A stretch of 64,000 bases of DNA from assembly GCA_963575645.1 (NCBI GenBank), contig OY754464.1, positions 74,126,948-74,190,947 on the forward strand, in the 5' to 3' direction. The notes under the pieces are model-generated. The model did no database searches and had not been told where the DNA came from. It worked only from the letters and a program-made list of their open reading frames with translations. The stretch comes from Xanthostigma xanthostigma (Eukaryota > Arthropoda > Insecta > Raphidioptera > Raphidiidae). Positions 345 to 43,539 of the stretch are shown piece by piece; within the stretch, counting starts at the first letter, position 1, and the number at the start of each line of letters is the position of its first letter. Both the position numbers and the translations under genes were made by a program.

Positions 345-620
345 ATAAAATTATCGATTAATTTTTCAGACAATATATTAACCAAATATAATTAATACAT
401 TAACGTTTCGATCCCGATTAAAATAAAAAAAAAAAAATTTAAAAAAATTCTAAATAAGGTATTAATTATTTTTTTATATTTTTAGATCCGTTCTGAAGAA
501 GATCCAAATCGGGATCGAAACGTTAATGTATTAATTACATTTTGTTAATATATTGTCTGAAAAATTGGTCGATAATTTTATTTATTGAAGAGTTCTAATC
601 AGACGTTAATCAAAGATTTG
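345..620 (+). mobile_element. Fold-back element family A, copy 1 (13-bp TSD)
   Basis: A 276-bp inverted-repeat element flanked by the perfect 13-bp duplication CATACATACATAG (332-344 and 621-633). The left arm reads AAATTATCGATTAATTTTTC; the right arm repeats it inverted and then extends into an asymmetric tail, GAAGAGTTCTAATCAGACG. Related copies lie near 8360, 8903-9192, 17272-17615 and 43245-43539. The long constant-length duplication argues against a cut-and-paste DNA transposon and for target-primed insertion. The right arm contains a hammerhead-like core (489-528). Confidence 0.8.
489..528 (+). ncRNA. Putative minimal hammerhead ribozyme core, family A
   Basis: Read in order: stem I CGTT (489-492), CTGAAGA (493-499), one A, stem II GATC...GATC (501-504, 513-516) around an 8-nt loop, GAA (517-519), palindromic ACGT (520-523) that could form stem III in a dimer, T at position 17, then AATG (525-528) pairing back to CGTT with one G-U. 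All invariant core bases (CUGANGA, GAA, UH) are present. Minimal, dimer-dependent hammerheads are known in Penelope-like elements. Other copies of the family have a broken core. Activity is inferred, not shown. Confidence 0.5.
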
Positions 621-1524
621 CATACATACATAGACTGCTAAACTCATAACCCTTCCTTTTGACTTCGCCGCAGTCGGGTAAAAACATTGATCATTTAGTG
701 AACTATGTGATTCCGTCTTTAATCATCACAAATTCGACATAAGTAGTTTTGTTTTGTGGTCGTAGAATTCTTTCAGTTATTTATAACAAAGCATCATCTT
801 TCTCTTGACGAGATATGACTTCAGCGGAAGTTGAAATTCCTTTATATTGTACCAAGATGAAATTAATACTCGGAAAAACCAATTATAATAACATCTTGAT
901 AAAAAATGCGTCTAGTCTTTTTCAATTTAATATAATACATATATAAAAGTTTGTTAAAATGCATCGCCATTTAAACGAAGTTATTCGTTTTTCTTTTTCT
1001 TTTGAAAATTGTGTTCAGAACAAAATGAAAGATATTTATAATACATTATTAAAATATTTGCTTTATTGTACAGTAGAGTCTCGATAACGTGAACTAGTTC
1101 TTGCACGTGGTGGTCATTAACTGAATATTGATTTTATAAAAAATAAGTTTAAAAACTAAAACCCGACTACTGAAAAGTATGAAACAAGAAAATATTCTCA
1201 TCTGCGGAGAGCCGTTGTCATATGCCACCGACTCTAACAAAACATTATATTTTAACAGTAGTAAACGATCATAAGCTCTAGGGTAAAGTGCATCACGCTA
1301 TACATTTAGAGGGGCTTCATATTTTCGAAAAAAATTAGTTAGTTAAGAATAGCGGCACTTTTTCAAAAATCAATTTAAAACATTTTTTTCAACGGAACTT
1401 TATTCTTTCAAGTATTAAGATAACACCATCATTTACTCAAATTTATTTAACTCAACAGGGCGTTGCGCTCGGGATATTATGCCCGCGCTGAACCCAATTT
1501 TCAACGTTAAATAAAAAAACTATA

Positions 1525-1712
1525 GAGATAGAGTCCCGGAAGACGGAACTTTTTTATTGGAAATTTCCTCCTCTTTAAGAATCTTGTTTTACAGTTTGTG
1601 AGATATTAGCGAAAAACTAAATGCCTTTTTTCTTTCCTCTTAATTTGTTTATAACTTTTTCAATTTCTCAAATATTTTTTCTAGATGTCATTCCGAATAC
1701 AATGAGCCATCG
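1525..1712 (-). repeat. Single-arm copy of the 44.9-45.6 kb palindromic repeat
   Basis: The stretch runs from GTCCCGGAAGACGGAAC to ATGTCATTCCGAAT and matches the right arm at about 45390-45575 (TTCCGGGATATGGAAC ... ATGTCATTCCGAAT). It is strongly diverged, and only one arm is present here. No coding content. Confidence 0.5.
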
Positions 1713-1988
1713 GTCATTTTTGTAAAAACTATTTCAAGCCTTAACACGTTTTTGAACTTGCGACGTAGACTTAACAACCCTGAAAAAAATTCCAGCCAAT
1801 TGGGCGACGGGACCATTTTAACTTCAAAAATGTTGACATTTGATTGTAATAAAGAAAATAAAGTTTCTGATATCGCGTGAGGTGACGCGGGTAATGGCTA
1901 GTATTCAATATGATATTAATTATTCGTTGCCATGGTTACCTACATAGTATGTTACACGCCATGTAAAAATTAATCAAAGCATGCTTAA

Positions 1989-2372
1989 CTAGTTTATTTC
2001 TGACAGATCCATAAAACAAAAGAGCGGATGATTTTTTTTTATTTTCAAAATATTTCCGAAACTATAAAGTTTAGAAAATAATTTTTTTAACAAAACTTTC
2101 TTGAAAAAATAAATAGAATAATAAGCCGTTATGAAAAGTATATCATTATTATATAAAAAATACCGTTTTAGCATATATCTCTTCTGCGCATGCGCCGATT
2201 TTCCCCAAAAACAATAGGGCTCTTCATATTTGCATACCAAACATCCTCCCAAAGTTTGGTTTCAATCCGCTCATCCGTTAAAACGGAAAGATATTGTAAA
2301 ATTTTTGAAAAGTGATTTTAGACCTAAACTAGTACCATTCCCTACTTGTGGGTTGGAATGGTAAAATCAGTT
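1989..2372. repeat. Dispersed repeat family B (probable LINE 3' region)
   Basis: Two blocks are shared with other places. GCGCATGCGCCGATTTTCCC through TTTGGTTTCAATCCGCTCATCC (about 2190-2280) recurs at 20120-20150 and 20255-20335. AACGGAAAGATATT through GTGGGTTGGAATGG (2280-2366) recurs at 18456-18537. The layout resembles the 3' untranslated region of an insect LINE, but no coding part is left. Confidence 0.5.
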
Positions 2373-2811
2373 CTGTAACGTAACTAGCCTCGAAGATAAA
2401 GGGGGTCTAAAAGGACTCGAAATAGTTCATGTAAACATATATAGGCACAGTACTTTGCGAAAACTTGACCGAGGCACCCCGTGCGCTATGATTCTAACCG
2501 CATGCATCATTTAAAAAAATGCGTGTAATTTTTACTCCCATTCAACTATAACAGTGCGTTATAAAAAATTCCATGCAAGCCCCCCATATTACGTCATGGC
2601 GTGTTAACATACGTATTTGTATACATTCAGCATACCGCGTTGGCTGCATTTGTGCCATAATTGGTGGACGTTTTGCCGGTCACGATCACAAATGCACACA
2701 TTTTTGTTTAGTGTCTACGCAAGAGCCTCCGTGGAATGCACAATGCACAATTGTACAGACCGTCGCAAAAGTTCAAAATCTTTTCAAACTGGACGCCTGC
2801 TTATATTAAAC

Positions 2812-2842
2812 ACTGGCGGGCCCGGTCCGGTTTTACCCGGAT
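2812..2842 (-). mobile_element. Degenerate Helitron 3' end
   Basis: GGTCCGGTTTTACCCGGATG matches the hairpin at the 3' ends of the full Helitrons at 38740 and 41712-41740, inverted. The CTAG terminus is lost (GGCGGG in its place). About 3130-3205 holds a diverged stretch with GACAGACAGACAAACATG that may belong to the same relic. Confidence 0.35.
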
Positions 2843-3212
2843 GCGATAGAGATATTTTGTGTTGTATTCTGCAAAATGTATTTCATTCAGAATCTACCAC
2901 AGCGCCGAAATGACTGAACTAATAGCTTTGAGCTGATGTCGCTAGGTGGTAGTGCCCGCTAGCTCATCCTGCTAGTTGCCGCTTGGTGTGCTACAGTGAC
3001 GCGCCATTTGAACATAACCAGTTGCGCTCGCCTGCTTGATGTCGCTACATGATACGGATAGTTTTCTTGACAAAACACCGTCATTTTTGTACAAAATATT
3101 TACAAATTATATATACAAAAAACCTTCCTCGTTTATCGCTCTTTCTATTAGTGAAAACCGTATAAAAAGCCGTTCGGTAGTTTTGAGTTTAACGCGTTCA
3201 GACAGACAGACA

Positions 3213-3294
3213 AACATGAATCATTTAAAATAAATGACACCTCGAATATGTCGAACATATTCGAGGTGTCAGACATTTTAAATTGTTCATGTTA
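3213..3294. repeat. 82-bp palindromic hairpin (short MITE)
   Basis: Arms of about 40 bp meet at 3253-3256. The inner 17 bp, GACACCTCGAATATGT and its complement, are perfect; the outer part has several mismatches. No TIR or target duplication stands out. Confidence 0.7.
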
Positions 3295-3299
3295 TTTGT

Positions 3300-4432
3300 C
3301 AGAGAACATTATTTTTTCGTTTTGGTTAAAGTTTTTAAGCTATCCAATTAAAAAACAAACAGTATCTATAAATTTTTTACAAATTTAGAGGGAAAACGCC
3401 CTAAAATCAAGAAAAGTCATAGAGGAAATAGGTGTCAGACTAGGCCTAATGAGGCCATATACAAAGTTTGGGGAGAGTATGTATCAGTAAAATTTTTGCC
3501 GACGGGCACTCTGAATCATAACTATGTATGTATTATAATGGAACATTTCAATTTAATTTTCACCCACTTTCACACATCTGTGAAATTTGAAATTTTGCAC
3601 ATGACAATATGTACAATCATTTATTTATAAACATTTATAAATACTTATATATAAATAATTTATATAAACATAGCTTTTTAGCATAATTACCGTTGCGTCG
3701 TTGTAGCACTGTGGAGCAACTAACTCGTCCCACTCGCCGCGAGCAACTGACCAATCAGGCGTTGTTGTCTTCAAGACCTGCTTTCAGATCGACACTACTG
3801 CCATCTAGAGACATTAGCTGTTATTATCATGAGAGTCAATGTTGCTATCAATAGTTTCTCACTTTATAAGGTATTTGTCATACTCAACTCAATATTGCAT
3901 TCCTTTGCACTTACGTCATTGTAATTCTAAAGATGTGATATTTCAGAAATAAAAAAACAAAGGTTACCAAACTTTTTGCGACCACTAGAAAATACGTGTA
4001 TATTATTGTGTGTCGGTGCATTTATGCTTCATGCGGCATAGTCGGGATGACGGCGTAGTCAGGGAAGCAGGGGTGGTCCGGTCGCGGATTTTACCATAAT
4101 CTCGCCATTAGTTTTCCGCACGTTACCGTGTTAATCCCCGTCTTCCCTTCACATTCGCACACTGCTTTGAACCGTTAGGCGGTGGTTCCTCTAGTTTTCT
4201 TGTTTAGTACACAAACACCAATACACACGAACAAAACACCTGAGGTTTTTATATGAACGGTGTCTGAGATACAGTGCGCATCAAAAGTATCGCCGCCTTT
4301 GATAATTCGTGCAATAAACATTATATGGATGTGTAAACATCTGTACGCGTCCTCTCCCAAAATAATATATTTTGGGCCGGCTGTATGCGGATAATTAGAG
4401 TTGTTTATCGTCGGACAACGCACACGAACCGC
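3300..4432. other. Unclassified AT-rich stretch
   Basis: No coding region, tRNA or paired repeat recognised. The GC-richer patches at 3690-3800 and 4020-4180 could be old LTR or gene-flank sequence, but nothing identifies them. Confidence 0.4.
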
Positions 4433-4434
4433 AC

Positions 4435-5098
4435 GAACAGTCACTGACGACCGCTCGAGCAATCACTGGCAATCGTTCAAACTGTCACTAACAACTGATC
4501 GAGCAATCACTGTCAATCGTTCGAGCAGTCATTGACAATCGTTCGAACAGTCACTGACAACCGTTCGAATAGTAAATATCAATCGCTCGAGCAATCACTC
4601 GGCTGGAGCATTCGCTGTCAATCGTTCGAGCAATCATTGATAACCGCTCGAACAGTCACTGACAACAGTTCGAATAGTCACTGACAACCGCTCGAGCAAT
4701 CACTGTCAATCGTTCGAGTAGTCATTGACAATCGTTCGAACAGTCACTGACAACCGTTCGAATAGTCAATGTCAATCGCTCGGCTGGAGGAATCACTGCC
4801 AATCGTTCGAGCGGTCATTGACAACCGCTCGAACAGTCACTGACAACCGTTCGAATAGTCAGTGACAACCGTTCGAGCAATCACTGTCAATCGTTCGAGC
4901 AGTCATTGACAACCGTTCGAACAGTCACTGACAACCGTTCGAATAGTCAATGGCAATCGCTCGAGCAATCACTGTCAATCGTTCGAGCAGTCATTGACAA
5001 CCGCTTGAACAGTCACTAACAACCGTTCGAATAGTCACTGACAACCGTTCGAGCAATCACTGTCAATCGCTCGAGCAGTCACTGACAACCGCTCGAGG
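4435..5098. repeat. 22-bp minisatellite, about 30 units, with 88-bp higher-order pattern
   Basis: Units have the form TCACTGACAACCGTTCGAAC plus AG. Four variants alternate (GAGCAATCACTGTCAATCG, GAGCAGTCATTGACAATCG, GAACAGTCACTGACAACCG, GAATAGTCA...), giving a near-regular 88-bp order. Each unit centre is a palindrome, TTCGAA or CTCGAG. Two junctions near 4600 and 4780 carry the same extra CGGCTGGAG, so they are register slips of one ancestral block. The array ends 25 bp before a Harbinger transposase fragment. Confidence 0.9.
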
Positions 5099-5122
5099 TG
5101 ATCGCTCAAATCCTGTTCCAAT

Positions 5123-5221
5123 ATGAATTTTAAGGAGGAAATACTACTGTTGTTATTTTTTCTTAGACGCAGACGACGTAGAAAACAAAGAAAATTCTGG
5201 GTTCATCCAATTTTAAAATGA
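5123..5221 (+). pseudogene. PIF/Harbinger transposase N-terminal fragment
   Basis: A 32-codon frame begins MNFKEEILLLL, continues with a basic run of six arginines and ends RKFWVHPILK before TGA. The hydrophobic-basic-FWVHP order matches the N-terminus of Harbinger transposases (HARBI1-like), which are normally about 350-400 aa and have a DDE nuclease domain. None of that domain follows: downstream (5222-5450) is non-coding. It could be one exon, or a fragment captured in a non-autonomous element. Identification is by motif memory only. Confidence 0.6.
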
Positions 5222-5224
5222 ATA

Positions 5225-5935: not shown

Positions 5936-5937
5936 TA

Positions 5938-6083
5938 AAGTATTAAGCTATTTATTATCTAAAAAATTGTACGAAAGATTGAAAGTTTGATGATTAAAAA
6001 AATAATGAAAAATTAATTTTTTTTGAATCATCAAACTTTCAATCTTTCGTACAATTTATTAGATAATAAATAGCTTAATACTA
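5938..6083. repeat. Inverted repeat with ~57-bp arms
   Basis: Left arm 5938-5997 and right arm 6027-6083 are nearly exact complements (AGTATTAAGCTATTTATTAT at the outer side, GATTGAAAGTTTGATGATT inside). A diverged single copy of the right arm lies inside the family A element at about 17428-17490, linking the two. Confidence 0.75.
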
Positions 6084-6089
6084 ATTAAT

Positions 6090-6840
6090 TTTTATATTTT
6101 TTAGTTAATTTTAAAGTGTTTCTTCATTTTTAGAAAGTTGTTACTTAATAATTGTACTTATCCTATGAAAACAAAATATTTAGAACGTTGATGTTGGGTC
6201 TAAACAGTGTAGCGGAAGATAGTTGATGATTTTTTCAATGCATCGATGTTTAATTTACAAAAATCGGTGGTTCTGTAGATTTCGATGTTTTGTACATTGG
6301 CTAGAATTTTTTTCTGCATAAGCAAACCTCTCCCCAAATGGATAAATGTCCAGTTATGTCTGCTAGGCATGCAAGACAATGATAATAATAAAATATATCG
6401 AATTTTTCTGCAACTAATTTCATCCCCTCATATTATTAGCTATATTAAATTTACTATTAAAATTTTAACATTGTTATCCAGTACACTTTTGTATTGTGGG
6501 AATTTGAACTACAAAAAGCTTTTGAATGATTTTGAAATATAGACACTGAACAACTGAGATGACGTGGATGATTTTTTTTTTTCATAGAAATTAGACTGTA
6601 TCATTCACGGCATTATTATTTTACAATTCAGTGTGCCTCCAGCTTTATTCCCTTCCTAACCAGAAAACATTTCATATTATTCGCGTGTTGCGGGATTATT
6701 TGTACTTATAACTAGTCGGTATTTTGTGAGATTTTTGTAATCTTTCTGTTATGTTAAAAAAAACATTTTTTGTCAGTTTCGTTTTTTTTGAGTTAAAAGT
6801 TTAGCTTTGGTGTTAACTATTTATGGAATTGTTTTTATAT
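6090..6840. other. Unclassified AT-rich stretch
   Basis: No coding sequence or repeat partner recognised in this window. Confidence 0.4.
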
Positions 6841-7969: not shown

Positions 7970-8355
7970 TATTAAATATATGGCTTTAATATAAAAACGT
8001 GGGGTGCTTGATGTCAGTAGTAATAAACTTTACATTACTAGCTATTCGTAAAAGGAGCTATTATACAAAAAGTAGAAATCAACCCACGTTATTGTATTAG
8101 CTAATTTTGTTGTCAAATTATTTTGTGCTTTTTAGATTATAAAAATGCGTTTTAGTTTCTTAGCATAATTTTATTTTTCGTTTTATAGTCTTTTAGTTTA
8201 TATAAATTGTATCTACGGAAAGTTCGTTTAAAATCAAAGATAGTTCCGCGGAACTACTCAACAAAGAAAATTCCATGTTTATGGTATCTTTGGAATCGGA
8301 TATACAAATAGAAAGTAAAATATTGTTAAATTTTATTTTTACTGGACTTAAGTCT
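7970..8355. other. Unclassified AT-rich stretch
   Basis: Nothing recognised between the direct repeat and the next family A tail. Confidence 0.4.
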
Positions 8356-8359
8356 AATT

Positions 8360-8410
8360 TAATAAATAAAATTATCGAAGAGTTCTAATCAGACGTTAAT
8401 CAAAGATTTG
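8360..8410 (+). repeat. Family A tail fragment
   Basis: AATAAATAAAATTATCGAAG leads straight into the family A tail (AGTTCTAATCAGACGTTAAT). The inverted-repeat body is missing, so this is a deletion or 5'-truncated copy. Confidence 0.75.
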
Positions 8411-8902
8411 TCTAATTTTTTGTATTCTGTTTCGTTTGATATTAATGGCTTAAAAACTAGATATTTCGACTCAAATTCTTTATCCACCTGATACCAGAGA
8501 TTTCGCTCAAGCCTTTTGTACAACCCTGTTGTTTTGTCTTCCACACAAATGATATTCGCCTTGTCACAATAATGGCACCCGACTGATTAGTTAAACGAGC
8601 GACAACCAATTTAATTGTACATCGAAACTTTCAAAAAGGAAAACTTCAATATAACTTTCTCATCACTCGGAAACTTTATAAACTTTTGGTTTTAAGTGCG
8701 TTAGAAATTTATTTTGTATTGTTCACGCTAATAAAATTTTAATAACAAAACAACTTTTTAATTATTTTAATCATGTCTTATCATAACGTCTAAACTCTGT
8801 CTAATATATGGCTAGTTGTTATTATAAAGGAAAGTGATAACTTTGAGGTTATTGATTAATAACACAAAAAAGCTAATACTCGTATACACAAGGTATATTA
8901 AT

Positions 8903-9192
8903 TAAAAATCTTTAATAAACCCAAATATTAAAATAAATAAAATTATCGATTATATAATTGACAAAAATTATAAAATTATAATTCAATAGATGGATGTTGA
9001 GGTCCGGATTTAGATCTTCTTCAGAAATAATCTAAAAAATATAAACATTAATTAGTATCTACTTATTTTCTAATAGAATTAAATTAAATTTTTTTTTATC
9101 AAAATATTAATGAAAAATTAATAACAATTTTTTTTTATAATGTTTGTCAATTATATAGTCTGAAAAAATTGGTCGATTATTTTATTTATTTA
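8903..9192 (-). mobile_element. Fold-back element family A, copy 2 (degenerate)
   Basis: Arms at about 8930-9040 and 9060-9192 carry the family ends (AATAAATAAAATTATCGATT and GGTCGATTATTTTATTTATT). A relic of the tail (AAATCTTTAATAAAC) on the left shows minus orientation. The hammerhead-like core survives only partly on the minus strand: CTGAAGA and GATC remain, GAAA is lost. Confidence 0.7.
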
Positions 9193-9390
9193 AATAATGG
9201 TATCATTCCGCCCGAGATATATACTATTTTTTGGTACGTATCCACTAAAATAGCTAGTTTTCACGTCAATAACAGTATATTTTTAAAAAAATGCAGGCCA
9301 CTTTTGAGCAATTTTCACTTCTAGTAGCAAGTGAGGTGCAAGTTCAATGGACAATAACAAAAACAAATTTATCAGGGATTGGTATTATAT

Positions 9391-14019: not shown

Positions 14020-14510
14020 GGAGAGGTGTTAAACACTTTTCAACGGTTATTATTAAGGTGCGCCCACACTATGCCGCTGTATGCAAACTGATATGGTCAA
14101 TTGGCAAAGACAAGTGGAAAAAAGTGTGCGCGCAGTTGAAATAAAACATGTCAACAATACGTATATATGTACGGTCAATGTTAGGAATACGGGCAATGTC
14201 GACAATGCCTGGGAAATGTCGACATTGACCGGTCAATGTCGACAATGCCCGAGCCACATCGGGCAATGTCTGAAATCGGACAAGATTCGAAAAATAGATT
14301 TTTTATAAACATGAAACGCTGATATTTGATTGTATCTTTATCATGACAAGTTATCATTAACGCTTTATGAAATTTTTATCACTGATATCAACTATTGAAG
14401 AATATATTTTTCAGCTTTCTATTACAATTATTGATGATTGAAAACACTTCTTTAACAAACAGTAATAATAACTAGACGAGAATAATACATAATGTAGTAA
14501 TTATTATAAT
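14020..14510. other. Unclassified stretch with short GGCAATGTC repeats
   Basis: Between 14170 and 14270 the motif GGTCAATGTC/GGCAATGTCGACA recurs about five times on both strands (for example TGTCGACATTGACCGG), a small local repeat. About 14440-14475 shows weak similarity to the LTR family interrupted at 14915. Confidence 0.4.
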
Positions 14511-14513
14511 ATA

Positions 14514-14910
14514 TTACAGAGTAACTACTGTTTGCTACAATTGTTAAGAAACACCCATTGTTACAACGCTATCAAAATTGGGTTCGTATTTAATATAAGG
14601 AAACAATTTCACCTTTGATTCACTCATAGCTCTCACTACTGTGACGGTTCACATCTAGCGTTAACTAATATAATTGGCTCTCGCATGATGTGAAAAAAAT
14701 CAGTTACCAATGCTATAAATATTGGAATGATAGTTTGATAGTTGTGTCACTGTGGTGTAATGTAACTCAGTCCGCCGCGATTGTGGAAAGATTCGGGGTT
14801 CGTATCCCTACGGTGACATTGTTTGTAAATTAAACTAATTTTTCTATGTTGATAGCGTTGTAACAATGGGTGTTTCTTAACAATTGTAGCAAACAGTAGT
14901 TACTCTGTAA
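14514..14910. mobile_element. TA-flanked MITE with 65-bp TIRs
   Basis: Arms TTACAGAGTAACTACTGTTT... (14514-14575) and the inverse (14847-14910) are nearly identical, flanked by TA on both sides. This fits the Tc1/mariner target rule. The interior carries a tRNA-like sequence (14746-14817). It abuts the truncated end of an LTR. Confidence 0.8.
14746..14817 (+). tRNA. tRNA-like sequence inside a MITE (pseudo-tRNA)
   Basis: 72 nt with a 7-bp acceptor stem (GTCACTG with CGGTGAC, one G-U), an anticodon-stem-like CAGTC/GATTG and a B-box-like GGGGTTCGTATCCC. The D arm is poor and the loop in the anticodon position has six bases, so a functional tRNA is unlikely. A captured tRNA-related sequence or part of an old SINE. 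Confidence 0.4.
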
Positions 14911-14914
14911 TATA

Positions 14915-15466
14915 TAGTAATAATAACGTTAACAGAATCAAAACTAATAGTTCTAAATAAGTAACAGAAGAATATAAAGTCCTAATTTTGTACACAAAAT
15001 ATTTACAACACACAAACACATTGAAGTTTATCTAGTACACTTATTTGCACTTGTCTATTAACTATATTCACACGATTATTTACAACAAGTTATTTATGTA
15101 GAACCAGATTTATATAATTGCACTCAATGGTTTACACAGCTCATTTATCTTCTATCTTAGCAGCTACCTCGGTCTTGCTGTACTGAACAATTTATGTCAC
15201 ACAGTTATCTGTAATCCGCTGTACGTTTGCCAGTTGCTGTTAACGCGCTGAACTGGTTGACTGACTGACTTTCCAACCACTCCACCCGAATTTTATAGCT
15301 TCGTCGCCGCCTGTAGAATGTTCTAGAAGTTTCTCAACCTTTCTTAACATGCATTGCCTTTTACAGGCTATTCTAAGAAGGTCGGGTTTTTACTTGATTT
15401 CTATTGTTGTCGTGGTCTGGAACATTCTATGGAACACATTATCGTCCCAACAGGGAACGCGCAACA
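14915..15466 (-). mobile_element. LTR, gypsy-like family, minus strand, 3' truncated
   Basis: On the minus strand the LTR starts TGTTGCGCGTTCCCTGTTGG at 15466 and runs to the GTTAACGTTATTATTACT block, where the TA-type MITE begins. The blocks CAATGGTTTACACAGCTCAT and ACACAAAATATTTACAACAC match copy 1 inverted. No coding part adjoins it. Confidence 0.75.
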
Positions 15467-17143: not shown

Positions 17144-17271
17144 ATGTTCAAAAAGTCATACGCGACTTTTTGTACACTTTACAGGAGAGCCCAAAATTCG
17201 ATATTTAATATTTTCTTGTTGTAATTATGTTTTATATTATATGTTTATTATCCATAATATAATATAATAAA

Positions 17272-17615
17272 AATCTTTGATTAACGTCTGAATAGAACTC
17301 TTCAAATAAATAAAACAGTCGACCAATTTTTTTCCGACCATATATTGACAAAAATTATATAAAAATATAAATCAAAATAACAAAGACGTTTCGATCCGGA
17401 TTTGGATCTTCTTCATTAAATTTTTTTGATTCATTCAAACATTCAATCATCGTGCACTCTATTAGATAATAAATAACTAATACTAATTAATTTTTATATT
17501 TTTTAGATTTTTCTGAAGAAGATCCAAAACGTCCATCTATTTTGATTTATATTTTTATATAATTTTTGTCAATATATGGTCTGAAAAAAATTGGTCGACT
17601 ATTTTATTTATTTGA
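17272..17615 (-). mobile_element. Fold-back element family A, copy 3 (13-bp TSD)
   Basis: 344 bp flanked by ATAATATAATAAA on both sides (17259-17271 and 17616-17628). The tail lies on the left (AAATCTTTGATTAACGTCTG), so the copy is inverted relative to copy 1. It includes a stretch related to the inverted repeat at 5938-6083. On the minus strand the left-arm hammerhead-like core has C3 mutated to A (ATGAAGA), with GATC...GATC and GAAACGT kept. Confidence 0.8.
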
Positions 17616-17629
17616 ATAATATAATAAAG

Positions 17630-17880
17630 TTATTTAACATAGGCATTCGAGGTGTAGCTTTGAGCTGGTTTGAGAGCTATTTGTCCAACAGACAACAGAC
17701 CACAACTGTGAATGGAGTGCTCAATGATACGCAAACTATTCGCTTTGGCATACCGCAAGGTACCATTCTTGGACCCACTCTCTTTTTGATTTATATAAAT
17801 GATCTATGCAATAACAATGCATATTTTCATTTGCAGATAATACTGTCCTCTATTTCGAAGATGTGGACTGAAATACGAAA
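17630..17880 (+). pseudogene. Jockey/CR1-like LINE reverse transcriptase fragment
   Basis: The frame reads [19 protein letters not shown], then [10 protein letters not shown] and LIYINDL, which are RT motifs of the palm and fingers in the right order. The catalytic motif is only found after a frameshift, as FADN at 17830-17841 in another frame, so the second catalytic aspartate is Asn. Both changes make it inactive. The fragment covers about 85 codons of an ORF2 that is normally near 900 aa. It adjoins the family A insertion, which may have landed in it. Confidence 0.85.
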
Positions 17881-17884
17881 ATTG

Positions 17885-18345
17885 TTGCTGACGTCTTTTT
17901 GCACATTAACCCTCGAATTACAGTGTCACCATGACGTAGCGCGTGCCGTATATAGTTTAAATATATCGGGTGGATGGTTAACGCAACGTTAACGTAATGA
18001 ATGGAAAGAACTTATGCCATTAGTGCGGTGACTAAGACCATTTGCAACGTATAAAAATTAATGGTCTGGAATTATTCCTAGTGTCGGTCGTCCATCAACG
18101 CCTTCTTGTTTTGTTTGCAGATGTTCCGTAGAGAAAATGCGTCAAAATATCCCGACGCTTTTATTCGAAACAGTTAACTTATTCAATTTACTTAAACTAT
18201 TTCTTTTTAACGAAAAATAGTAAATCGTTATACAATAGATATAAAGCAATTTATTTTTACAAGGGGTGAAACAAATTCATTGATTTGCAGGTAATAAATG
18301 TACCTAAACTTCTGAGCTGTTTTTTTCGAGAATATTTCATTGGTG
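17885..18345. other. Unclassified stretch
   Basis: Nothing recognised downstream of the LINE fragment. Confidence 0.4.
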
Positions 18346-23243: not shown

Positions 23244-24411
23244 TCTAGATGGAAAAGTCGAAAGCAGAACATTTGACTTAGGAACTTTGTTTGGACTAGT
23301 TAGGAGATAAACATACCAAAAGTCCTTACCCCTCCGAGGTACGCCCGAAGGGGGGGAGCACAAAGAAGGTTCCGTTTTTTGGTATTTTGCTTTCATCTCG
23401 GAAACGGTACGTCGTACGAAATTTTGTTGGAATACATAATGAAAGCTGATAAAATTCTCTACAACTTTAGCTTTCACACTTTTTATCTATCTCCAATCTT
23501 TGCCTAGCTATGAGCTCCGAAAAATGGTCGATTTTCAAAAATGTGTTAAATTCTCTGTAGCACATTGTAACAATACGAATTTGTCAAAATCATTTCGTAT
23601 CGCTCATCCACACTATTAAAAACACCCACACACTATTAAAAAATAACATAAGCTGGGAGTACCTCCACGCAGGGCCCTCTTTCCCACTGGGCACTCTGGC
23701 ACGTGCCCAGGGCCCCGCAATCGATAGGGACCCCCTAGTTTAATGGTATACTAAGTACCTAAACTGTTTTAAACAAAAATCATCAGTGAACTATTTTTCA
23801 TATACTTATTTTTTTTGTGTCCTTCATGTTAAAATTGGGAACGTGATCCTTTTAAATATATGCATTTTATATCACATTCCTCGACTTAGAATCTAGAACC
23901 TTGTTTATCTATTTTCTTTGTCTATTCTAACAAAATAGTGCTCTGTTAAGGTCATAGGGGCCCTATAATCCTAATGTGCCCAGGGCCTTCAATAGGTTAA
24001 AGCTTATGTTATTTTTTAATAGTGTGTGGGTGTTTTTAATAATGTGGATGAGCGATACGAAATGATTTTGACAAATTCGTATTGTTACAATGTGCTACAG
24101 AGAATTTAACACATTTTTGAAAATCGACCATTTTTCGGAGCTCATAGCTAGGCAAAGATTGGAGATAGATAAAAAGTGTGAAAGCTAAAGTTTTAGAGAA
24201 TTTTATCAGCTTTCATTATGTATTACAACAAAATTTCGTACGACGTACCGTTTTCGAGATGAAAGCAAAAAACCAAAAAACGGGACCTTCTTTGTGCTCC
24301 CCCCCTTCGGGCGTACCTCAGAGGGGCAAGGACTTTTAGTATGTTTATCTCCTAACTAGTCCAAACAAGGTTCCTAAGTCAAATGTTCTGCTTTCGACTT
24401 TTCCATCTAGA
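23244..24411. mobile_element. Fold-back element with two 411-bp arms
   Basis: Arms 23244-23654 and 24001-24411 have the same length and very high identity (TCTAGATGGAAAAGTCGAAA at the outer end). The 346-bp spacer holds CAGGGCCCTCTTTCCCACTG at one side and GTGCCCAGGGCC at the other, likely an inserted hAT-like relic. Frames in the arms are mirror artefacts with no known protein motif. Confidence 0.85.
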
Positions 24412-32156: not shown

Positions 32157-33740
32157 TCCATGGAAATCGTACCATAAAAGGGGTCTTCACTTGCATCAAA
32201 TCGGGCAGTTCTGATTTTTTTTATATGTTGTATGTAATGAGGTGGTAATGACAAATATAATTTTTCCACCTCGAAAGCCTTCCGGAACATTGTAAAATTC
32301 ATGAAAAGCCATTAAATTTTGGATCATTTTTCAGTTTTTGCCATTTTTTACCACCAAGGACCTGTTTTACGGTAGTAGTCATATGAATTCTTTTAAAGAA
32401 GACTAAATTTGCAAGAAAATGAGAATAGTTGGGTCTCGATAAGCTGAATAGTTTCAAAGATACAGCTGTTCAAATGTTTGCAAAATTTCTTAAATAATAC
32501 AATTTAGAGTTTAGGGTGTCTGTCAAAAATATTTTTCTACTAAAGGTGTGCTTTTTATTATTTTTATATATAGTATAGGGTATATAATTATTTATAATAA
32601 AAAAAAACAAAACCATAATACTTTGCCGTAGTTAAAAATAGTTCTTCCAAGTTACGCTGTGGCAGCCAATCATAAATCGATGTTCCCAAACAATATTTTT
32701 CACTACATTATGCATCCCTGTTGTTATCGAGTGAGGTTAGAAATCCTGAAATGGGAGCTTGGTCTGACGAAACCACCGGCTCCTCAACCCCTGCTAAACA
32801 TGATTTCCTGCAACTGCAAAAAAGGTTGTACCAGCAGCTGTGGTTGCAGAAAAGCAGGACTCAAATGCTCGGCTGTTTGCAACCACTGCAGCGGCCAATC
32901 TTGTGATAACAAACCAGACCTGATCTGTGATGACATTGATGAACCTACCATCGATGACCCACCATCAGATGACGATTTCGACCTGCCTGAGCTGGTCGTT
33001 GACGAAATGCTACCGAAGCAAGCTCCCAAAAGGTGTACCGTCGATTTAGAGGTTCAGCCTGGTCCATCAAAGATATACAAGAAAAACTAATAATACAACT
33101 CCTGTGACGACCTCAACTTCAACCGCCACATGCAAAGATAATATGTATAACACAGTCTTTAAATTTTTATGCTGTAATTATTTCTTTTTAAAATTATAAT
33201 GCTTATTTCATAAGTCGTATTTCATTTTGTTTACTCACCTCAGCAACTTTGAACAGCTGTAGCTAGGGAACTATCAGATCTTAATATATCAAATTGGTCT
33301 CGTTTTGTTAAAAAAATTGTCTTCTTTAAAAACGTATATGAATTTATGCCGTGAAATAGATCAATAATTGACCACATTGACGAGAACGAGTAAAAACTCG
33401 AAAAAAAATTTTTTTTTGAAATTTTGCAAACATTTGAACAGCTGTATCTTTGAAACTATTCAGCTTATCGAGACCCAACTATTCTCATTTTGTTGCAAAT
33501 TTAGTCTACTTTAAAAGAATTCATAGTGACTTCTACCGTAAAACAGGTCCTTGGTGGTAAAAAATGGCAAAAACTGAAAAATGATCAAAAATTTAATGGC
33601 TTTTCATGAATTTTACAATGTTCCGGAAGGCTTTCGAGGTGGAAAAATTATATTTGTCATTACCACCTCATTATATACAACATATAAAAAAATCAGAACT
33701 GCCCCATTTGATGCAACTCAAAATGTACCAATTCCATGGA
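32157..33740 (+). mobile_element. TTAA-flanked element with ~385-bp TIRs carrying a Cys-rich ORF
   Basis: 1,584 bp, flanked by TTAA on both sides (32153-32156 and 33741-33744). Ends are TCCATGGAAATCGTACC and GGTACA-like/TTCCATGGA inverses. Long inverted arms, about 32157-32540 and 33400-33740, are highly alike. The right arm shows a partial internal duplication (33245-33385). The single-copy centre encodes one 143-aa protein, with no transposase. The TTAA target is piggyBac-like, but long arms and this cargo are not typical of that family. Confidence 0.8.
32659..33090 (+). CDS. Small CRC/CXC-like Cys-rich protein of a TTAA element
   Basis: 143 aa. Residues 39-84 carry nine cysteines spaced C-x-C-x3-C-x3-C-x-C-x6-C-x3-C-x2-C-x4-C (51, 53, 57, 61, 63, 70, 74, 77, 82), as in CNCKKGC...CGCRKAGLKCS. 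This resembles the tesmin/TSO1-type CXC zinc-binding module, and more closely the Cys-rich C-terminal modules of arthropod transposon proteins (PAP..LL..I.CNCKKGC). Residues 90-117 are very acidic. The tail is basic and ends KIYKKN. The N-terminal 30 residues look unrelated, so the start is uncertain and the ORF may be the last exon of a deleted protein. No frameshift in the Cys region. Function unknown; DNA binding is inferred. Confidence 0.6.
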   Translation: MAANHKSMFPNNIFHYIMHPCCYRVRLEILKWELGLTKPPAPQPLLNMISCNCKKGCTSSCGCRKAGLKCSAVCNHCSGQSCDNKPDLICDDIDEPTIDDPPSDDDFDLPELVVDEMLPKQAPKRCTVDLEVQPGPSKIYKKN

Positions 33741-35215: not shown

Positions 35216-35220
35216 CTATA

Positions 35221-35672
35221 CAGGATGTTCTACAAACTCTATGACAAACTTTGACAAATGGTAAGTCACTTGATTTTAAACATATTTTTTTTAATAAACA
35301 TGGGTCCGATTCGTTTTTGTTTATAAGTTACAAGCATTTGAAGAATCAAAAACGTAGGCTGATAAATAGAAATATCGGTTGTTATGACAATAATTATTGT
35401 TAGTGTAATTTTAATTATTTATTAGATATTTCGTGTGAAAGTTCTAAATAAAAAATAAAAGCTGAGGGTGGACATTTCGAACAAATTTTATAGTCTTAAG
35501 TTTTGTGATTATCATTTAAATTAAATTTTTATTGTTAATTGTTAATAAAGGTTAAATGCTTGTAACTTCTAAACAAAAACGAATCGGATACATGTTTATT
35601 AAAAAAAAAATGTTTAAAATCAAGTGACCTACCATCTGTCAAAGTTTGTCATAGAGCTTGTAGAACACCCTG
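35221..35672. mobile_element. TA-flanked MITE with ~120-bp TIRs
   Basis: 452 bp. The left end CAGGATGTTCTACAAACTCT and its inverse at the right (CAGGGTGTTCTACAAGCTCT) continue matching for about 120 bp. TA flanks both ends (35219-35220, 35673-35674), as for Tc1/mariner. Non-coding AT-rich middle. Confidence 0.85.
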
Positions 35673-35891
35673 TATAGCAAAATTTCTGATCTGTTAGTAT
35701 ACAAATATTTTTATATTTTATACATACTTTAGAAGTTCGGAAAATATACAACCAAAGTTTTAACAGTATTTTATATCTTTTAAAGGAGATTCCTAAAATT
35801 CTTTGTCTTCGGTTGGTAACACACGCCGATCGCATTTTAAGTTTACAAATTACTATTATACGTTCCGTATAAATATAGACGCTTCATTCTA

Positions 35892-38489: not shown

Positions 38490-38736
38490 TTAGATACAAT
38501 CAAGTCCTTCATATTCGTGGATCATACGCGATCATAGAAATACGCGATCATAGAAAGTATGCGAAAGTGACGTTATCCTAGGTGATGATTGTAAACTATT
38601 AGTAGAAGTTTTGTTCCAAAATATGTATTGAAGGAGATTTATTTGCTTGAGGAACAATTTAAAAATAAGCTTTACCAGAGTATCGCTTGTGGTCAACGAG
38701 GTATGTTATAATGTTTAGTTTTATCTTTATTTGTAA

Positions 38737-39273
38737 TTAGCGGTCCCGTCCGGTTTCACCCGGGTGTAAAAGAACGAATGGGGAATGGAGGACCATGAGT
38801 ACACACATTTATATTAGTTTACCGAGATGAATGTTGTGTCCAAATTTCATGATGATCGGAGTTACCGTTCAAAATTTTTTGTCGATAAAAAGCAGTATTT
38901 ATACTTTTTTTAACTAATAATTTTTTTTTAATTAATTAAATAAAATTAAAATATATTTTAATGTAAGCCTTAGAAGAAAGCAATGTAGAAAATAAAAAAT
39001 AAATAAAATTGCATTCGCCAAACGTAGGGCTCGAACCCACGACCCTGGTATTGATAGTCTTGTGCTCTACCGATTGCGCTAGCCGGCGTTGTATGCTTAC
39101 ATCGCTAATATGAGTATACTTAGTGCATTTCACCTGAATAGAAGCTTATTTTTTAGATACATTTGGAACATTTTTCATTAATGCTCCGCTCCTAATCGTC
39201 GTAGCCTGATTTTATATAGCCTATAGCCTTCCTCGATAAATGAGCACTCTTCAGCTTTATATATTAGTATAGA
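38737..39273 (-). mobile_element. Helitron with internal tRNA-like block, full length
   Basis: Minus-strand TCTATACTAATATATAAAGC at 39273 (preceded by A) to a terminal hairpin and CTAA at 38737 (followed by T). This is the Helitron pattern TC...CTRR between A and T, with the Lep1-type start. 537 bp, non-autonomous: no Rep/helicase. It is nested in the fold-back element 38600-39434, so it is younger. Confidence 0.85.
39016..39088 (-). tRNA. tRNA-like block inside Helitron (not a functional tRNA)
   Basis: The minus strand reads GCCGGCTAGCGCAATCGGTA through GTGGGTTCGAGCCCTACG: intact A and B boxes, best resembling tRNA-Lys. The anticodon loop CTATCAA is not Lys (CTCTTAA) and the acceptor stem is imperfect. 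Same orientation as the Helitron in all five copies. Confidence 0.65.
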
Positions 39274-39327
39274 TTTAAATATCAAAATAATATTAAATGT
39301 AATGAATACTATACCTACATGTTCGTA

Positions 39328-39365
39328 GGCCCTGATGATGAAAATATATTTTTCGAACGTTGGCC
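39328..39365 (+). ncRNA. Putative hammerhead core with canonical CTGATGA
   Basis: GGCC (39328-39331), CTGATGA (39332-39338), stem II GAAAA/TTTTC around TATAT (39340-39354), GAA (39355-39357), CGT, T, GGCC (39362-39365) pairing with the first GGCC. The A expected at 15.1 is missing (GAAC instead of GAAA), so this copy may be impaired. Confidence 0.5.
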
Positions 39366-39449
39366 ACAACTCACAAGCGATACTCTGGTAAAGCTCATTT
39401 TGTAATTGTTCCTCAACCAAATAAATCTCCTTTAATTGTAAACTATATT

Positions 39450-40530
39450 AAATTGTTATAATGGTACAGAACCATCAAGGTGTCAGTTCGACTCGTATTT
39501 GTCCGCCTTTTTTTCAATCTTTTTGAAATATTTATCGGCGAATAATTGAAGAATTTCGTAAAATTACACCAACATAATTTTTCCAATGTGGAATACCTAC
39601 CTATAACTCGGGTATTTAATAAACCATTAACTTTATTCTGGAACTTTATTACACAAAAAAAAATGCTTAAAATGAAATATTTTTTCTGAGCCCGCCGAAA
39701 AAATATAGGTAGTAGGTACTTTGAAATACCTTGAACCCTGAGGACGGTTAGGTATTCCATCTCGATTATCCAGGCGCCCAAAGTTTTCAATTTCTATCTC
39801 GAAAGCAAAACACTTAAATTCGCCGAAATGTTTTTACGATGTCCACATATCGAGTGTTCGATTAATTATTTCGAAATACAAAACCTGGCATTTAGTTTTA
39901 GTGACTCGATTACAAATGTCTACGAGTTTTGATGCACCTTAATTAATTACATTTTTTTTAAACCCCTGTGAATTAAATTGATCAAAAAGCTGTGCCTTAA
40001 TCAAGTTAAAATCCATAACCCTTCGTGAACCATTCAATTAGGTTTAAATGCCGCGTTCATTTTATATATACCTCTAAGTGATGTATCGGGGTAAAAACCC
40101 CAACAAAGTTGCTTCCATGATTGGTTGAAAATCGTGTATTGATTCCGCGTCGAAATATTCTATGAATAGGTAATCTAGATGCCTACGGATATCCATCAAA
40201 CCATTTTGTACGTGACTACATTGTTTGAAACTTGGGTTGTATACAGGGATGATAGCAAAATGCTATATAGACTAACAATTTCAATGGAGCAGAAGTTGAC
40301 TGATTGCAAATGAGACGATTCTCATTCTGCTGTCTTTTGTTTGTGAAACACTAAAATTGTTATAGTTTTTCTCATAAAGGCCTCTCCTTGTCTGTTATGC
40401 TAAATGTATAAATGGTGTTTTAAAATTGTGCGCCACGACTGTAGAAATGTGTTTTCAACCAAGAATAAGCAAACAAGCTTATATTAACGATGTTTACCAT
40501 TTGAGAATGACCATAGATTGTGATAATATA
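39450..40530. other. Unclassified stretch
   Basis: No gene or repeat partner recognised in about 1.1 kb; the open frames have no known motif. Confidence 0.4.
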
Positions 40531-40534
40531 ACTA

Positions 40535-41047
40535 CTGTGCGATCGGCGAAAGAAGACCGGTGGGGAAAGGGCAAGAAGTCGTTGATGTGTTCCCAAATTA
40601 TCGGAATTCATAGGCGGCGCATAGCAAGGCATGCAACCAATGTATAGCTTTAAATTTTAAGGCATTATTTTGAGCCTCTAACTCGCACATTTTAATTACA
40701 TTCGCTATGACCTCCCTAGCGCCACTTCTAACTGTTTTTCCCTTTTTACTTTCCATTTTGATAATATTCAGACAACACCCCTCAACTTAGTCCGTGAACG
40801 CACACCTATGTACTGTCTGGTGTATGATTTTTTTGTACTGTTAGCAAGTGTAGTCCTACAGCTATGGCAATAGTACAATTATCGCGAAACGACAATTGCG
40901 ACACGTTTGGTCGACTGGACTCCCTTATTGCATAGAAGCGGTTCCAGGATCATTACCTTTTACTAATATAAAATACATGTGCGCTCTTCTGCAATAAGGT
41001 CATAGGACTACATTCCATTGACCGGTCTTCTTTTAAAAATCCAACAG
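40535..41047 (-). mobile_element. Tc1-like non-autonomous element, copy 2 (inverted)
   Basis: 513 bp between TA dinucleotides (40533-40534, 41048-41049); reverse complement of 35892-36426 with few differences. The two copies form a 5-kb inverted pair around the piggyBac, Harbinger-like and Helitron elements. Confidence 0.85.
40598..40756 (-). pseudogene. N-terminal remnant of a Tc1-like transposase, copy 2
   Basis: 52 codons, MESKKGKTVRSGAREVIANV..., one replacement (S to T) from copy 1 over the shared part. A 4-bp indel after KFKAI changes the C-terminal residues to HWLHALLCAAYEFR. The divergent ends show that only the first ~38 residues come from the parent protein. Confidence 0.5.
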
Positions 41048-41124
41048 TACAGTTTTTACGTATGCGGAAGCAGTCTAATGTCGTTGTGACACTCTCTGTC
41101 ATGTGCAAAGTTAGATTTTACTTA

Positions 41125-41740
41125 TCTATACTAATATATAAAGCTGAAGAGTTTGTTTGTTTGTTTGAACGCGCTAATCTCAGGAACTACTGGTTCAAAT
41201 TGAAAAAAAAATTTTTTGCTGGATAGCTCATTTATCGAGGAAGGCTATAGGCTATATAAAATCAGGCTACGACCAGTAGGAGCGGAGCATTAATGAAAAA
41301 TGTTGCAAAATGTATCTCAAAGATAAACTTCTATTCATGTGAAATGCACTAACTAAGTATACTCATATTAGCGATGAAAGAATACAACGTCGGCTAGCGC
41401 AATCGGTAGAGCACAAGACTGTCAATACCAGGGTCGTGGGTTCGAGCCCTATACGTTCGGCGAATGCATTTTTATTTTTTTTTATTTTCTACATTGCTTT
41501 CTTTTAAGGCTTACAGTTAAATTTATTTTAATTTTATTTAATTAATTAAAAAAAAATGTTTAGTTAAAAAAAGTATAAATACTGTTTTTTATCGACAAAA
41601 ACTTTTGAACGGTAACTAGGATCATCATGAAATTTGGACACAACATTCATCTCGATACACTAAGATGAATGTGTGTACTTATGTTCCTCCGTTGCCCATT
41701 CGTTCTCTTACACCCGGGTGAAACCGGACGGGACCGCTAG
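41125..41740 (+). mobile_element. Helitron with internal tRNA-like block, full length, reference copy
   Basis: Starts TCTATACTAATATATAAAGC after A and ends GGACCGCTAG before T. The 3' hairpin CCGGGT/ACCGG (41713-41725) lies about 10 nt from CTAG. 616 bp; the first 270 bp include GAGTTTGTTTGTTTGTTTGA and GGCTATAGGCTATATAAA. The tRNA-like block is central (41389-41462). Related copies: 30445-30885, 38737-39273, 46863-47125 and 55492-56369. No Rep/helicase. Confidence 0.9.
41389..41462 (+). tRNA. tRNA-like block inside Helitron (not a functional tRNA)
   Basis: GTCGGCTAGCGCAATCGGTA (A box intact) and GTGGGTTCGAGCCCTAT (B box intact), tRNA-Lys-like overall but with GTC in the anticodon place. It could serve as an internal pol III promoter; that is inference. 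Confidence 0.65.
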
Positions 41741-41744
41741 TAAT

Positions 41745-43230
41745 AAATAAAGAGATAAAAAGTACTTTTTTGCTAATTATTATTCTTATCACATACTAAA
41801 CCTCAATTTTTAAAATATCACAACGTTTTTCTTTCTGTTGATACAAAATTCATTGAAATATGAATGGTACTTTTTGTGAAATTTAATAAAATCTGTGATT
41901 TCTCATAAAGTTCAATGTTAAATACAAAAAACGTTTAATAGTAATTACTTTTTCTTTTGTTTTTTTTTTTTTGAAATTTTAGGTGGTTTATTATCTTATT
42001 AAAATCTACCAATACGCCAAGTTCATTTAATTCTGAACAGTAAGTCTCTAACCGACAGTACTACCTTAAAATGTGCTGCTAAAATTTAAATAAAATCGAC
42101 CCGACAGAACCGGCCTTACAAATTTTGTGAAAACACTAGTGTGCAGATACGCGAGGGGAATATTTAATTTGGTGAAGATGTTGGATTGACTATAATGTTA
42201 CAGTTAAGAAAAAAAATATTGATTATTATAGACGCTCGACAATTACCACTAAGCTTACTTTATTTTGCGTTTTGAACACAGAAGTATATTTGAAAGGTTA
42301 TTAAAAATTTTCAAATATAAGTATTGCAATAAAAAATCTTTCACATCATTGTATATGGAACACAGACAACTGGATCAGTTTTGTAATCCACGTGTTCAGT
42401 GAAGGGTTAAATCGTGTCGAGCGACGATCATTTAGATGAAAGGTTCGCTCTCCTGCACGCCGCGACGGCACTATATATATCTATCTAGTAGACCGGGAAC
42501 AGTGGACGCGTCCGTTTTAGTTTCCGGTTCCCTAGGGCACAGCGTCCACGCGACTGGAAGAGATATGCCGGGGATATTATGTCTATCTATCTATCTATCT
42601 ATAGCGTAACAAAATAAGTTTTAAGAATGAATACAGGTCCGCACATTGTTTATACGTACATCGAATTTCATTTAAAATGCAATATGTACAAGCATTTTGT
42701 TGATATGGTAGCTACATGCATTACAGAAAATCGTTCCACATAAAATGCAACACAAACCGAATGCCCAAGAGAGGCTCGTATGCATTTTTAACCGACTTCA
42801 AAGAGAAGGAGGTTCTATATTCGACGCGTATGTTTTGATTTTGTGTATGTTCAGGAGACTGTCAGAAATTATTTTTTTTTCAATAAATGTATTTCAAATG
42901 TTTCTTTGGTACAAAAAAAATCTCCCAAAATTTCAGCTTGATATTTTGAAAATTGAGCTGGTGCATGGGGGGGTCTTCTTTTCCATTTAAAATACATTGA
43001 AAAAAAAATTATATTCGAAATAATTATATGCAAAAACATTTTTTTTCGAATTTTCGTTTTCATACTCTCGTAGGAAATTAAATTCTCTACAAAATTGGTC
43101 TCTAATGTTTCCCACTCAAACTTGATATGAAAAAAGTTACAAATCCTAGAAGAAGAAGAATATTGTTCAGCTATAACTTTTCCAGGGGTTAACCGATTTG
43201 AAAAATTTTGATATCAATTTGTTCTGAATA
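41745..43230. other. Mostly unclassified, with repeat fragments
   Basis: A (CTAT)n run lies at about 42578-42602. An inverted pair around GTGGACGCG/CGCGTCCAC-like blocks lies at 42500-42560. AACCGACTTCAAAGAGAAGG (42790) is the start of a widespread insect repeat (AACCGACTTCAAA..AGGAGGTTCT). GTCGAGCGTCTATAATAATC lies inverted at 42222-42240. No gene. Confidence 0.45.
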
Positions 43231-43244
43231 TTTACCAATTGATA

Positions 43245-43539
43245 AATAAAATTATCGACCAATTTTTCAGACAATACATTAACAAAAAATATAATTAATA
43301 CATTAACGTTTAGATCCGGATTTGGATCTTCTTCAGAACGGATCTAAAAAATATAAAAAATAATTAATAATTAATTTTTTAATTTTTTATATTTTTTAGA
43401 TCCCTGTTGAAGAAGATCCAAATCCTGATCTAAACGTTAATGTATTAATTATATTTTTTGTTAATGTATTGTCTGAAAAATTGGTCGATAATTTTATTTA
43501 TTGAAGAGTTCTAACCAGACGTTAATCAAAGATTTTAAA
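43245..43539 (+). mobile_element. Fold-back element family A, copy 4 (13-bp TSD)
   Basis: 295 bp flanked by TTACCAATTGATA (43232-43244 and 43540-43552). Both arms are well preserved, and the tail GAGTTCTAACCAGACGTTAA is on the right as in copy 1. The hammerhead-like cores are damaged in both arms (TAAA instead of GAAA; CTGTTGAAGA in the right arm). Confidence 0.85.

What the first reader, a model, noticed from the sequence alone, without database searches (positions are those of the whole stretch)
345..43539. Fold-back family A: small retroposon-like unit with constant 13-bp target duplications
Three copies (345-620, 17272-17615, 43245-43539) are each bounded by a different perfect 13-bp direct repeat: CATACATACATAG, ATAATATAATAAA and TTACCAATTGATA. 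They share inverted arms and a one-sided tail (GAGTTCTAATCAGACG). Fixed 13-bp duplications do not fit hAT (8), TTAA, TA or Harbinger (3). Together with the hammerhead-like core this suggests non-autonomous, Penelope-like or retrozyme-like elements. I know of no named family with this layout.
Basis: partly seen in the sequence, partly recalled or inferred. Interest (0 to 1): 0.8.

Follow-up and report, generated by a model that had tools for sequence, protein, structure and literature searches.

The report
Short back-to-back Penelope-type retroelement insertions
These small mirror-image insertions look like stunted copies of a known but unusual class of jumping gene (Penelope-like elements), and a tiny extra copy hints that both cut DNA ends were copied from the element's RNA.

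Summary
The three copies (345-620, 17272-17615, 43245-43539) have inverted arms, a 33-nt tail at one end only, and perfect flanking repeats of 14, 13 and 13 bp. "Constant 13 bp" does not hold: a fourth tail-bearing copy (8361-8409) has 9 bp, and a tail-less relative (8932-9194) has none clear.

The layout matches published Penelope-like element (PLE) anatomy: inverted pseudo-LTRs, an optional 30-40 bp tail on one of them, variable duplications, AT-rich targets, and a minimal hammerhead. One of eight arms keeps an intact hammerhead-type core. Its predicted cut lies 94 nt before the tail end; the equivalent spacing in the lizard PLE Poseidon_Ac is 82-89 nt. So "Penelope-like" is supported; "no named family with this layout" is not.

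Both ends of the four tail-bearing copies look like cDNA starts. Among the six arms of the three named copies, 13 of 13 informative characters pair the two arms of one copy, although adding the diverged relative brings conflict (6 of 18). The fourth copy is 18 nt of one start joined to the other start's tail. I infer that both nicked strands primed cDNA and the cDNAs were joined.

I found no PLE ORF in the eight ORFs scanned. The genome-wide search did not complete.

The parts
332..345 (+). left target-site duplication of copy A1 (CATACATACATAGA; the last A may be element)
345..419 (-). A1 left (inverted) pLTR arm, sense on the minus strand; similarity stops inside hammerhead stem II
463..586 (+). 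A1 right pLTR arm (inner limit set by hand)
493..528 (+). intact PLE-type minimal hammerhead core CTGAAGA-A-GATCC..GGATC-GAAA-CGTT; predicted cut after 524
   Evidence: no Rfam hammerhead match
587..619 (+). A1 one-sided tail (33 nt)
621..634 (+). right target-site duplication of A1
17259..17271 (+). left target-site duplication of A2 (ATAATATAATAAA); its last base may equally be the end of the tail
17272..17303 (-). A2 one-sided tail
17304..17416 (-). A2 tail-side pLTR arm; hammerhead relic with C3 changed
17417..17615 (+). A2 other pLTR arm, longer; runs into an upstream stretch shared with 6012-6104; part of stem II missing
17616..17628 (+). right target-site duplication of A2
43232..43244 (+). 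left target-site duplication of A3 (TTACCAATTGATA); its final ATA also fits the start of the arm
43242..43361 (-). A3 left (inverted) pLTR arm; hammerhead relic with G12 changed (TAAACG)
43382..43502 (+). A3 right pLTR arm; the same G12 change plus a C3 change
43503..43535 (+). A3 one-sided tail, followed by TAAA before the duplication
43540..43552 (+). right target-site duplication of A3
8352..8360 (+). left target-site duplication of the mini copy (GTCTAATTT, 9 bp)
8361..8378 (-). mini copy: 18 nt of the inverted pLTR end, overlapping the tail by the dinucleotide GA
8377..8409 (+). mini copy: complete one-sided tail
8410..8418 (+). right target-site duplication of the mini copy
8932..9194 (.). 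diverged tail-less relative (copy B): pLTR-type ends on both sides, hammerhead relic on the minus strand from 9024, no clear duplication
5939..6104 (.). palindrome holding the upstream stretch also found in A2 (88% over 94 positions)

Best explanation
Family A consists of short, ORF-less insertions of a Penelope-like element (PLE). Each tail-bearing insertion is two 5'-truncated first-strand cDNAs of the pLTR region joined back to back. Proposed steps: (1) a PLE protein supplied in trans nicks both strands of an AT-rich target with a stagger of about 9-14 bp; (2) the two 3' ends each prime reverse transcription on pLTR RNA, one at the outer start (giving the tail) and one at the inner start about 33 nt further upstream (no tail); (3) the two cDNAs run a short way, through or up to the hammerhead, stop, and are joined with little or no homology; (4) gap filling duplicates the staggered target. 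Shown here: the anatomy, the duplications, that both termini correspond to the 3' side of one unit, the within-copy likeness of arms, the mini copy, and the hammerhead-type core and its spacing. Inferred: the PLE protein, its supply in trans, and priming from both strands. My estimates: PLE-derived about 0.87; double-ended priming as the origin of the palindromes about 0.6.
For: Published PLE anatomy: inverted pLTRs, a 31-bp tail optionally on one of them, the 5' inverted pLTR 37 bp shorter, duplications of 8, 9 and 10 bp, preference for AT-rich targets (PMC3846280). In the lizard PLE Poseidon, reverse transcription starts at two adjacent internal RNA sites, the stretch between them is the genomic tail, and both target strands are cut and extended in vitro (PMC11167929). 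Here: one intact core of that hammerhead type at 493, stem I pairing at 7 of 8 positions, stem III reduced to palindromic ACGU. Predicted cut to the tail's CAAAGATT end: 94 (A1), 96 (A3), 113 nt (A2), against 82-89 nt from cut to the reported start sites in the printed Poseidon template. Tail at one end only, 4 of 4 copies that have it. Among the six arms of A1-A3, 13 of 13 informative characters pair left and right arm of the same insertion. The tree groups A1L+A1R (bootstrap 96) and A3L+A3R (94). The mini copy joins 18 nt of the tail-less start to the whole tail inside a 9-bp duplication. Arm lengths are unequal in A1 and A2.
Against: No PLE protein found: all 8 listed ORFs of at least 120 aa were scanned against Pfam, and only one sub-threshold RVT_1 match (E 3e-4, 21 bits against a cut-off of 29.6) appeared; shorter or broken coding stretches were not scanned. 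The autonomous partner could not be sought. 7 of 8 arms have a damaged, truncated or missing core. The first, stricter hammerhead descriptor (no extra base before stem II) found nothing in the window; the relaxed one was made after that. Rfam gave no hammerhead match. With the two arms of copy B added, 6 of 18 informative characters conflict with pairing by copy, and A2L groups with B rather than A2R, at bootstrap 40 only. Copy B lacks a clear duplication and a tail. Gene conversion between arms of one palindrome could also make them alike. The mini copy could be a later internal deletion.
Confidence: 0.72

Rival explanations
1. The same PLE family, but the palindrome forms by self-priming (snap-back) of one nucleic-acid strand, as Arkhipova and co-workers proposed for antisense templates in A. 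vaga, not by priming from both target strands.
For: Proposed in the discussion of PMC3846280 because head-to-head palindromes are frequent there. A3 is nearly symmetrical, with 20 nt between its arms. It also predicts that arms of one copy are alike.
Against: Does not by itself explain the mini copy, where two different starts meet after 18 and 33 nt, nor the unequal arms of A1 and A2, nor why one end has the tail and the other lacks it. Later deletions could rescue it.
Confidence: 0.2
2. A palindromic master element is copied as a whole, like a SINE, and each insertion inherits both arms.
For: The layout recurs in three named copies.
Against: Predicts left arms resembling left arms across copies. 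In the six-arm set 0 of 13 informative characters do so, and 13 of 13 pair the arms within a copy, unless each subfamily has its own homogenised master. Only three copies bear on this.
Confidence: 0.12
3. A foldback or MITE-type DNA transposon with terminal inverted repeats.
For: Inverted arms and no ORF.
Against: The tail lies outside the inverted repeat on one side but inside the target duplication, duplications vary from 9 to 14 bp, and the ends are ragged.
Confidence: 0.04
4. Metazoan retrozyme (small circular RNA with a canonical type I hammerhead, mobilised by PLE or LINE proteins).
For: Short, AT-rich, hammerhead-type core. Authors suggest PLEs mobilise retrozymes (PMC7229834, passages).
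Against: [quoted passage not shown] The copies here are single, head-to-head, with a core lacking a helix III hairpin.
Confidence: 0.04

Closest known systems
Penelope-like elements with GIY-YIG endonuclease, e.g. Pen2a_Av of Adineta vaga (PMC3846280)
   Same: Inverted pLTR, tail of about 30 nt on only one of the inverted pLTRs, short variable target duplication, AT-rich targets
   Different: Here no ORF between or inside the pLTR arms, no direct tandem pLTR seen, duplications mostly 13-14 bp rather than 8-10
Poseidon_Ac of Anolis carolinensis (PMC11167929)
   Same: Minimal hammerhead CUGANGA-one base-stem II-GAAACGUH with stem I next to it (read by eye from the printed RNA), similar distance from cut to reverse-transcription start, tail explained by two starts
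   Different: Poseidon_Ac is autonomous, GC-richer, with its ORF starting within the hammerhead; no reading frame is open through that region in A1 or A3
Metazoan retrozymes (PMC7229834)
   Same: Short non-autonomous hammerhead-bearing units
   Different: Tandem arrays with canonical type I hammerheads; not head-to-head, no one-sided tail described in the passages seen
LINE-1 insertions with twin-priming inversions (recalled; only listed)
   Same: Two cDNAs primed at one target and joined
   Different: L1 has a poly(A) end and one RNA 3' start; here two adjacent internal starts and no poly(A)

Membership tests
Penelope-like elements | Telomerase-like RT with (usually) GIY-YIG endonuclease in one ORF | not testable with these tools
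   The copies are ORF-less; 8 of 8 listed ORFs of at least 120 aa gave only a sub-threshold RVT_1 fragment, and the partner genome could not be searched
Penelope-like elements | pLTRs in direct or inverted arrangement | tested here: met
   Inverted arms in A1, A2, A3 and B; direct arrangement not seen
Penelope-like elements | Optional 30-40 bp tail on one pLTR only | tested here: met
   33 nt, one end, 4 exact occurrences; B has none
Penelope-like elements | Short variable target-site duplication at AT-rich sites | tested here: met
   14, 13, 13, 9 bp and none clear in B; duplicated sites 0-31% G+C
Penelope-like elements | Minimal type I hammerhead lacking helix III in the pLTR | tested here: met
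   Intact core in 1 of 8 arms, relics in others; cleavage not tested; no Rfam match
Metazoan retrozymes | Tandem repeats of about 150-450 bp with canonical type I hammerheads | tested here: not met
   Head-to-head single units, core without helix III hairpin
Foldback/MITE DNA transposons | Inverted repeats reach both ends; fixed-length duplication | tested here: not met
   Tail outside the repeat on one side; duplications 9-14 bp

The most novel reading that the evidence does not exclude
PLE proteins routinely make insertions by extending both nicked target strands on pLTR RNA from two different adjacent start sites, so that each inverted-pLTR insertion is newly formed at its target. The one-sided tail marks which strand used which start, and a self-cleaving hammerhead is not needed for it: both arms of A3 carry the same G12 change, as if its source RNA already lacked a working ribozyme.
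Probability: 0.4. Interest if true: 0.65.

Novelty: new member of a known kind. Interest (0 to 1): 0.42.

Why it matters
How PLEs finish an insertion is open: the lizard study ends with steps 'yet to be validated', and the rotifer study could not choose between sense and antisense templates. Short ORF-less copies with both starts preserved, such as the 48-nt mini copy, are compact records of the reaction. A genome-wide set would test directly whether both target strands prime cDNA. As a family, the finding itself is an ordinary though instructive PLE derivative.

Tried and rejected
Hammerhead by Rfam: no match for the whole window at E up to 5 nor for 440-620 at E up to 10 (best was CRISPR-DR7, 18.3 bits against a gathering score of 37). 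First hammerhead descriptor (stem II directly after CTGANGA, at least 3 bp) found 0 in the window against 0.15 expected. After allowing one extra base and asking for 4 bp: 3 matches (493+, 46785+, 46733-) against a mean of 0.097 in 300 first-order shuffles. The extra base is also in the printed Poseidon RNA (by eye), but I relaxed the descriptor after seeing the miss.

Open reading frame through the tail: A2's tail arm reads open from an ATG for 23 codons, but its other arm and the arms of A1 and A3 have TCTG where this arm has TCGG, so I treat the frame as chance. Public scans for the tail: 0 exact matches in viral contigs and 0 in genome contigs; both are poor places to look for a eukaryotic element. 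Copy B and the 46.7-kb palindrome as further members with duplications: none found. Foldback/MITE, retrozyme and palindromic-master readings: see rivals.

Papers. Seen as passages or sections only: PMC3846280, PMC11167929 (parts 1-3 of 4), PMC7229834, PMC7761336, PMC6155905, PMC8969392. Not held: 10.1093/molbev/msu232, PMC5785218, PMC4209133, PMC8557442; what I say of them comes from reviews that cite them. The searches listed no paper whose title or abstract opening reports ORF-less head-to-head pLTR insertions or both-strand priming in genomic PLE copies; most of those lists were cut at 12-20 rows and I did not open most papers.
Full report
WHAT IS THERE. Exact flanking repeats are 14 bp (A1), 13 bp (A2) and 13 bp (A3). 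Equally long matches arose at frequencies of 0.0009, 0.0016 and 0.00025 in 20,000 random placements each in the same window. A1 and A2 duplicate simple or AT-only sequence; A3 does not. A blastn self-search and a profile search found further relatives: a mini copy at 8361-8409, a diverged tail-less copy B at 8932-9194, and a palindrome at 5939-6104 that shares the upstream stretch of A2. The mini copy has a 9-bp duplication (null frequency 0.0154); B has none convincing (longest match 6, null 0.18). So duplications are short and variable, not constant.

ANATOMY. Read in one orientation, the unit is: upstream AT-rich stretch, hammerhead-type core, about 60-80 nt, pLTR end (..ATTTTATTTATT), then a 33-nt tail. 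Each named copy has two such units head to head, and only one has the tail. The tail pattern has exactly four exact matches in 64 kb, one per tail-bearing insertion. At the tail-less end the arm begins at slightly different positions (A1 at ATAAAATT, A3 within ATAAATAAAA, mini at AATAAAT; A2 at TCAAAT by eye). In A3 the last three bases of the target fit the arm start. Reading 5' to 3' from either target end into the insertion, one reads the complement of the unit from its 3' side. That is the polarity of first-strand cDNA primed by that target strand.

THE RIBOZYME. A1's tail-side arm has CTGAAGA-A-GATCC..GGATC-GAAA-CGTT (493-524). My first descriptor, without the extra base, found nothing. 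Allowing it gave three matches in the window, this one and both arms of an unrelated palindrome at 46.7 kb, against 0.097 expected in 300 first-order shuffles. Stem I pairs at 7 of 8 positions, and stem III is only the palindrome ACGU, as in the PLE hammerheads that reviews describe as lacking helix III and perhaps acting as dimers (PMC7761336 and PMC6155905, passages). The other arms are damaged: C3 changed in A2's tail arm and A3's right arm, G12 changed in both A3 arms, stem II cut in A1's left arm and A2's other arm, several changes in B's left arm, no core in B's right arm. One of eight arms is intact. Rfam has no matching hammerhead. Cleavage is untested.

COMPARISON WITH KNOWN PLEs. The A. 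vaga study describes an inverted pLTR completing the insert, a 31-bp tail optionally at one of the inverted pLTRs, an inverted pLTR 37 bp shorter than the full ones, and duplications of 8, 9 and 10 bp or none. The Anolis study shows two adjacent internal reverse-transcription starts, the tail being the stretch between them, and cleavage and extension of both target strands in vitro; ribozyme mutants did not affect insertion. In its printed template the cut is at ORF +29 and the reported starts at +111 to +118, i.e. 82-89 nt apart. Here the distance from predicted cut to the tail's end is 94 (A1), 96 (A3) and 113 (A2).

ORIGIN OF THE PALINDROME. Among columns covered by all six arms of A1-A3, 13 informative characters exist; 11 set the A2 arms apart, 1 the A1 arms, 1 the A3 arms, and none pairs left with left or right with right. 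In the A1/A3 four-arm test it is 4 of 4. Bootstrap is 96 for the A1 pair and 94 for the A3 pair. When the two B arms are added, 18 characters are informative and 6 conflict with pairing by copy; A2L then groups with B at bootstrap 40. I give this less weight because B is old and its hammerhead side is lost, but it is a result against a clean picture. Three insertions are few, and gene conversion between arms would look the same. The mini copy is the strongest single hint: 18 nt from the tail-less start joined at a GA dinucleotide to the complete tail, within a duplication. Two starts meeting after 18 and 33 nt are what double-ended priming predicts if both cDNAs stop early; a later internal deletion is the alternative.

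MECHANISM. I propose staggered nicking of both strands, priming of cDNA by both 3' ends on pLTR RNA from the outer and the inner start, early stops, joining and gap filling. Steps on protein, trans supply and both-strand priming are inferred; anatomy is shown. If both A3 arms inherited their G12 change from the source RNA, the ribozyme was not needed for that insertion, in line with the in vitro result.

LIMITS. The window's source is not known to me; a non-LTR-type RT fragment beside A2 and the PLE features suggest an animal. No PLE ORF was found among the eight ORFs of at least 120 aa; smaller or broken frames were not scanned. Genome-wide copy number, duplications and the autonomous partner remain untested because the genome search did not answer in nine attempts. 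I cannot tell a true non-autonomous lineage from strongly 5'-truncated insertions of an ordinary PLE.

VERDICT. A PLE derivative of known layout; new member of a known kind, with a testable hint on how inverted pLTR insertions arise.

Noticed in passing
46679-46839: A second, unrelated head-to-head palindrome (arms 64 nt, 94%) with a hammerhead-like core CTGAAGA-T-GGAC..GTCC-GAAA-GCGCTC on both arms. No target duplication was found around hand-set ends (longest match 4-6). Possibly another PLE-type family.
   Followed up: partly
5939-6104: Near-perfect palindrome (64-nt arms, 97%) containing the upstream stretch of the A2 unit; matched weakly to a microRNA model (mir-1781, below its gathering score).
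   Followed up: partly
17585-17992: Reverse transcriptase fragment (RVT_1, E 3e-4, below the Pfam cut-off) directly beside the right duplication of A2; it looks non-LTR by eye.
   Followed up: partly
58844-60238; 23244-24411; 35216-35677; 14497-14927: Other long inverted repeats (arms 571, 411, 124 and 82 nt at 93-98%), probably other mobile elements.
   Followed up: no
32632-33090: 152-aa ORF with a cysteine-rich stretch (SCNCKKGCTSSCGCRKAGLKCSAVCNHC); no Pfam match at E 0.01.
   Followed up: no
55491-55563; 46989-47046: tRNA-model matches on the minus strand at 32.8 and 30.1 bits, just above the gathering score of 29.
   Followed up: no
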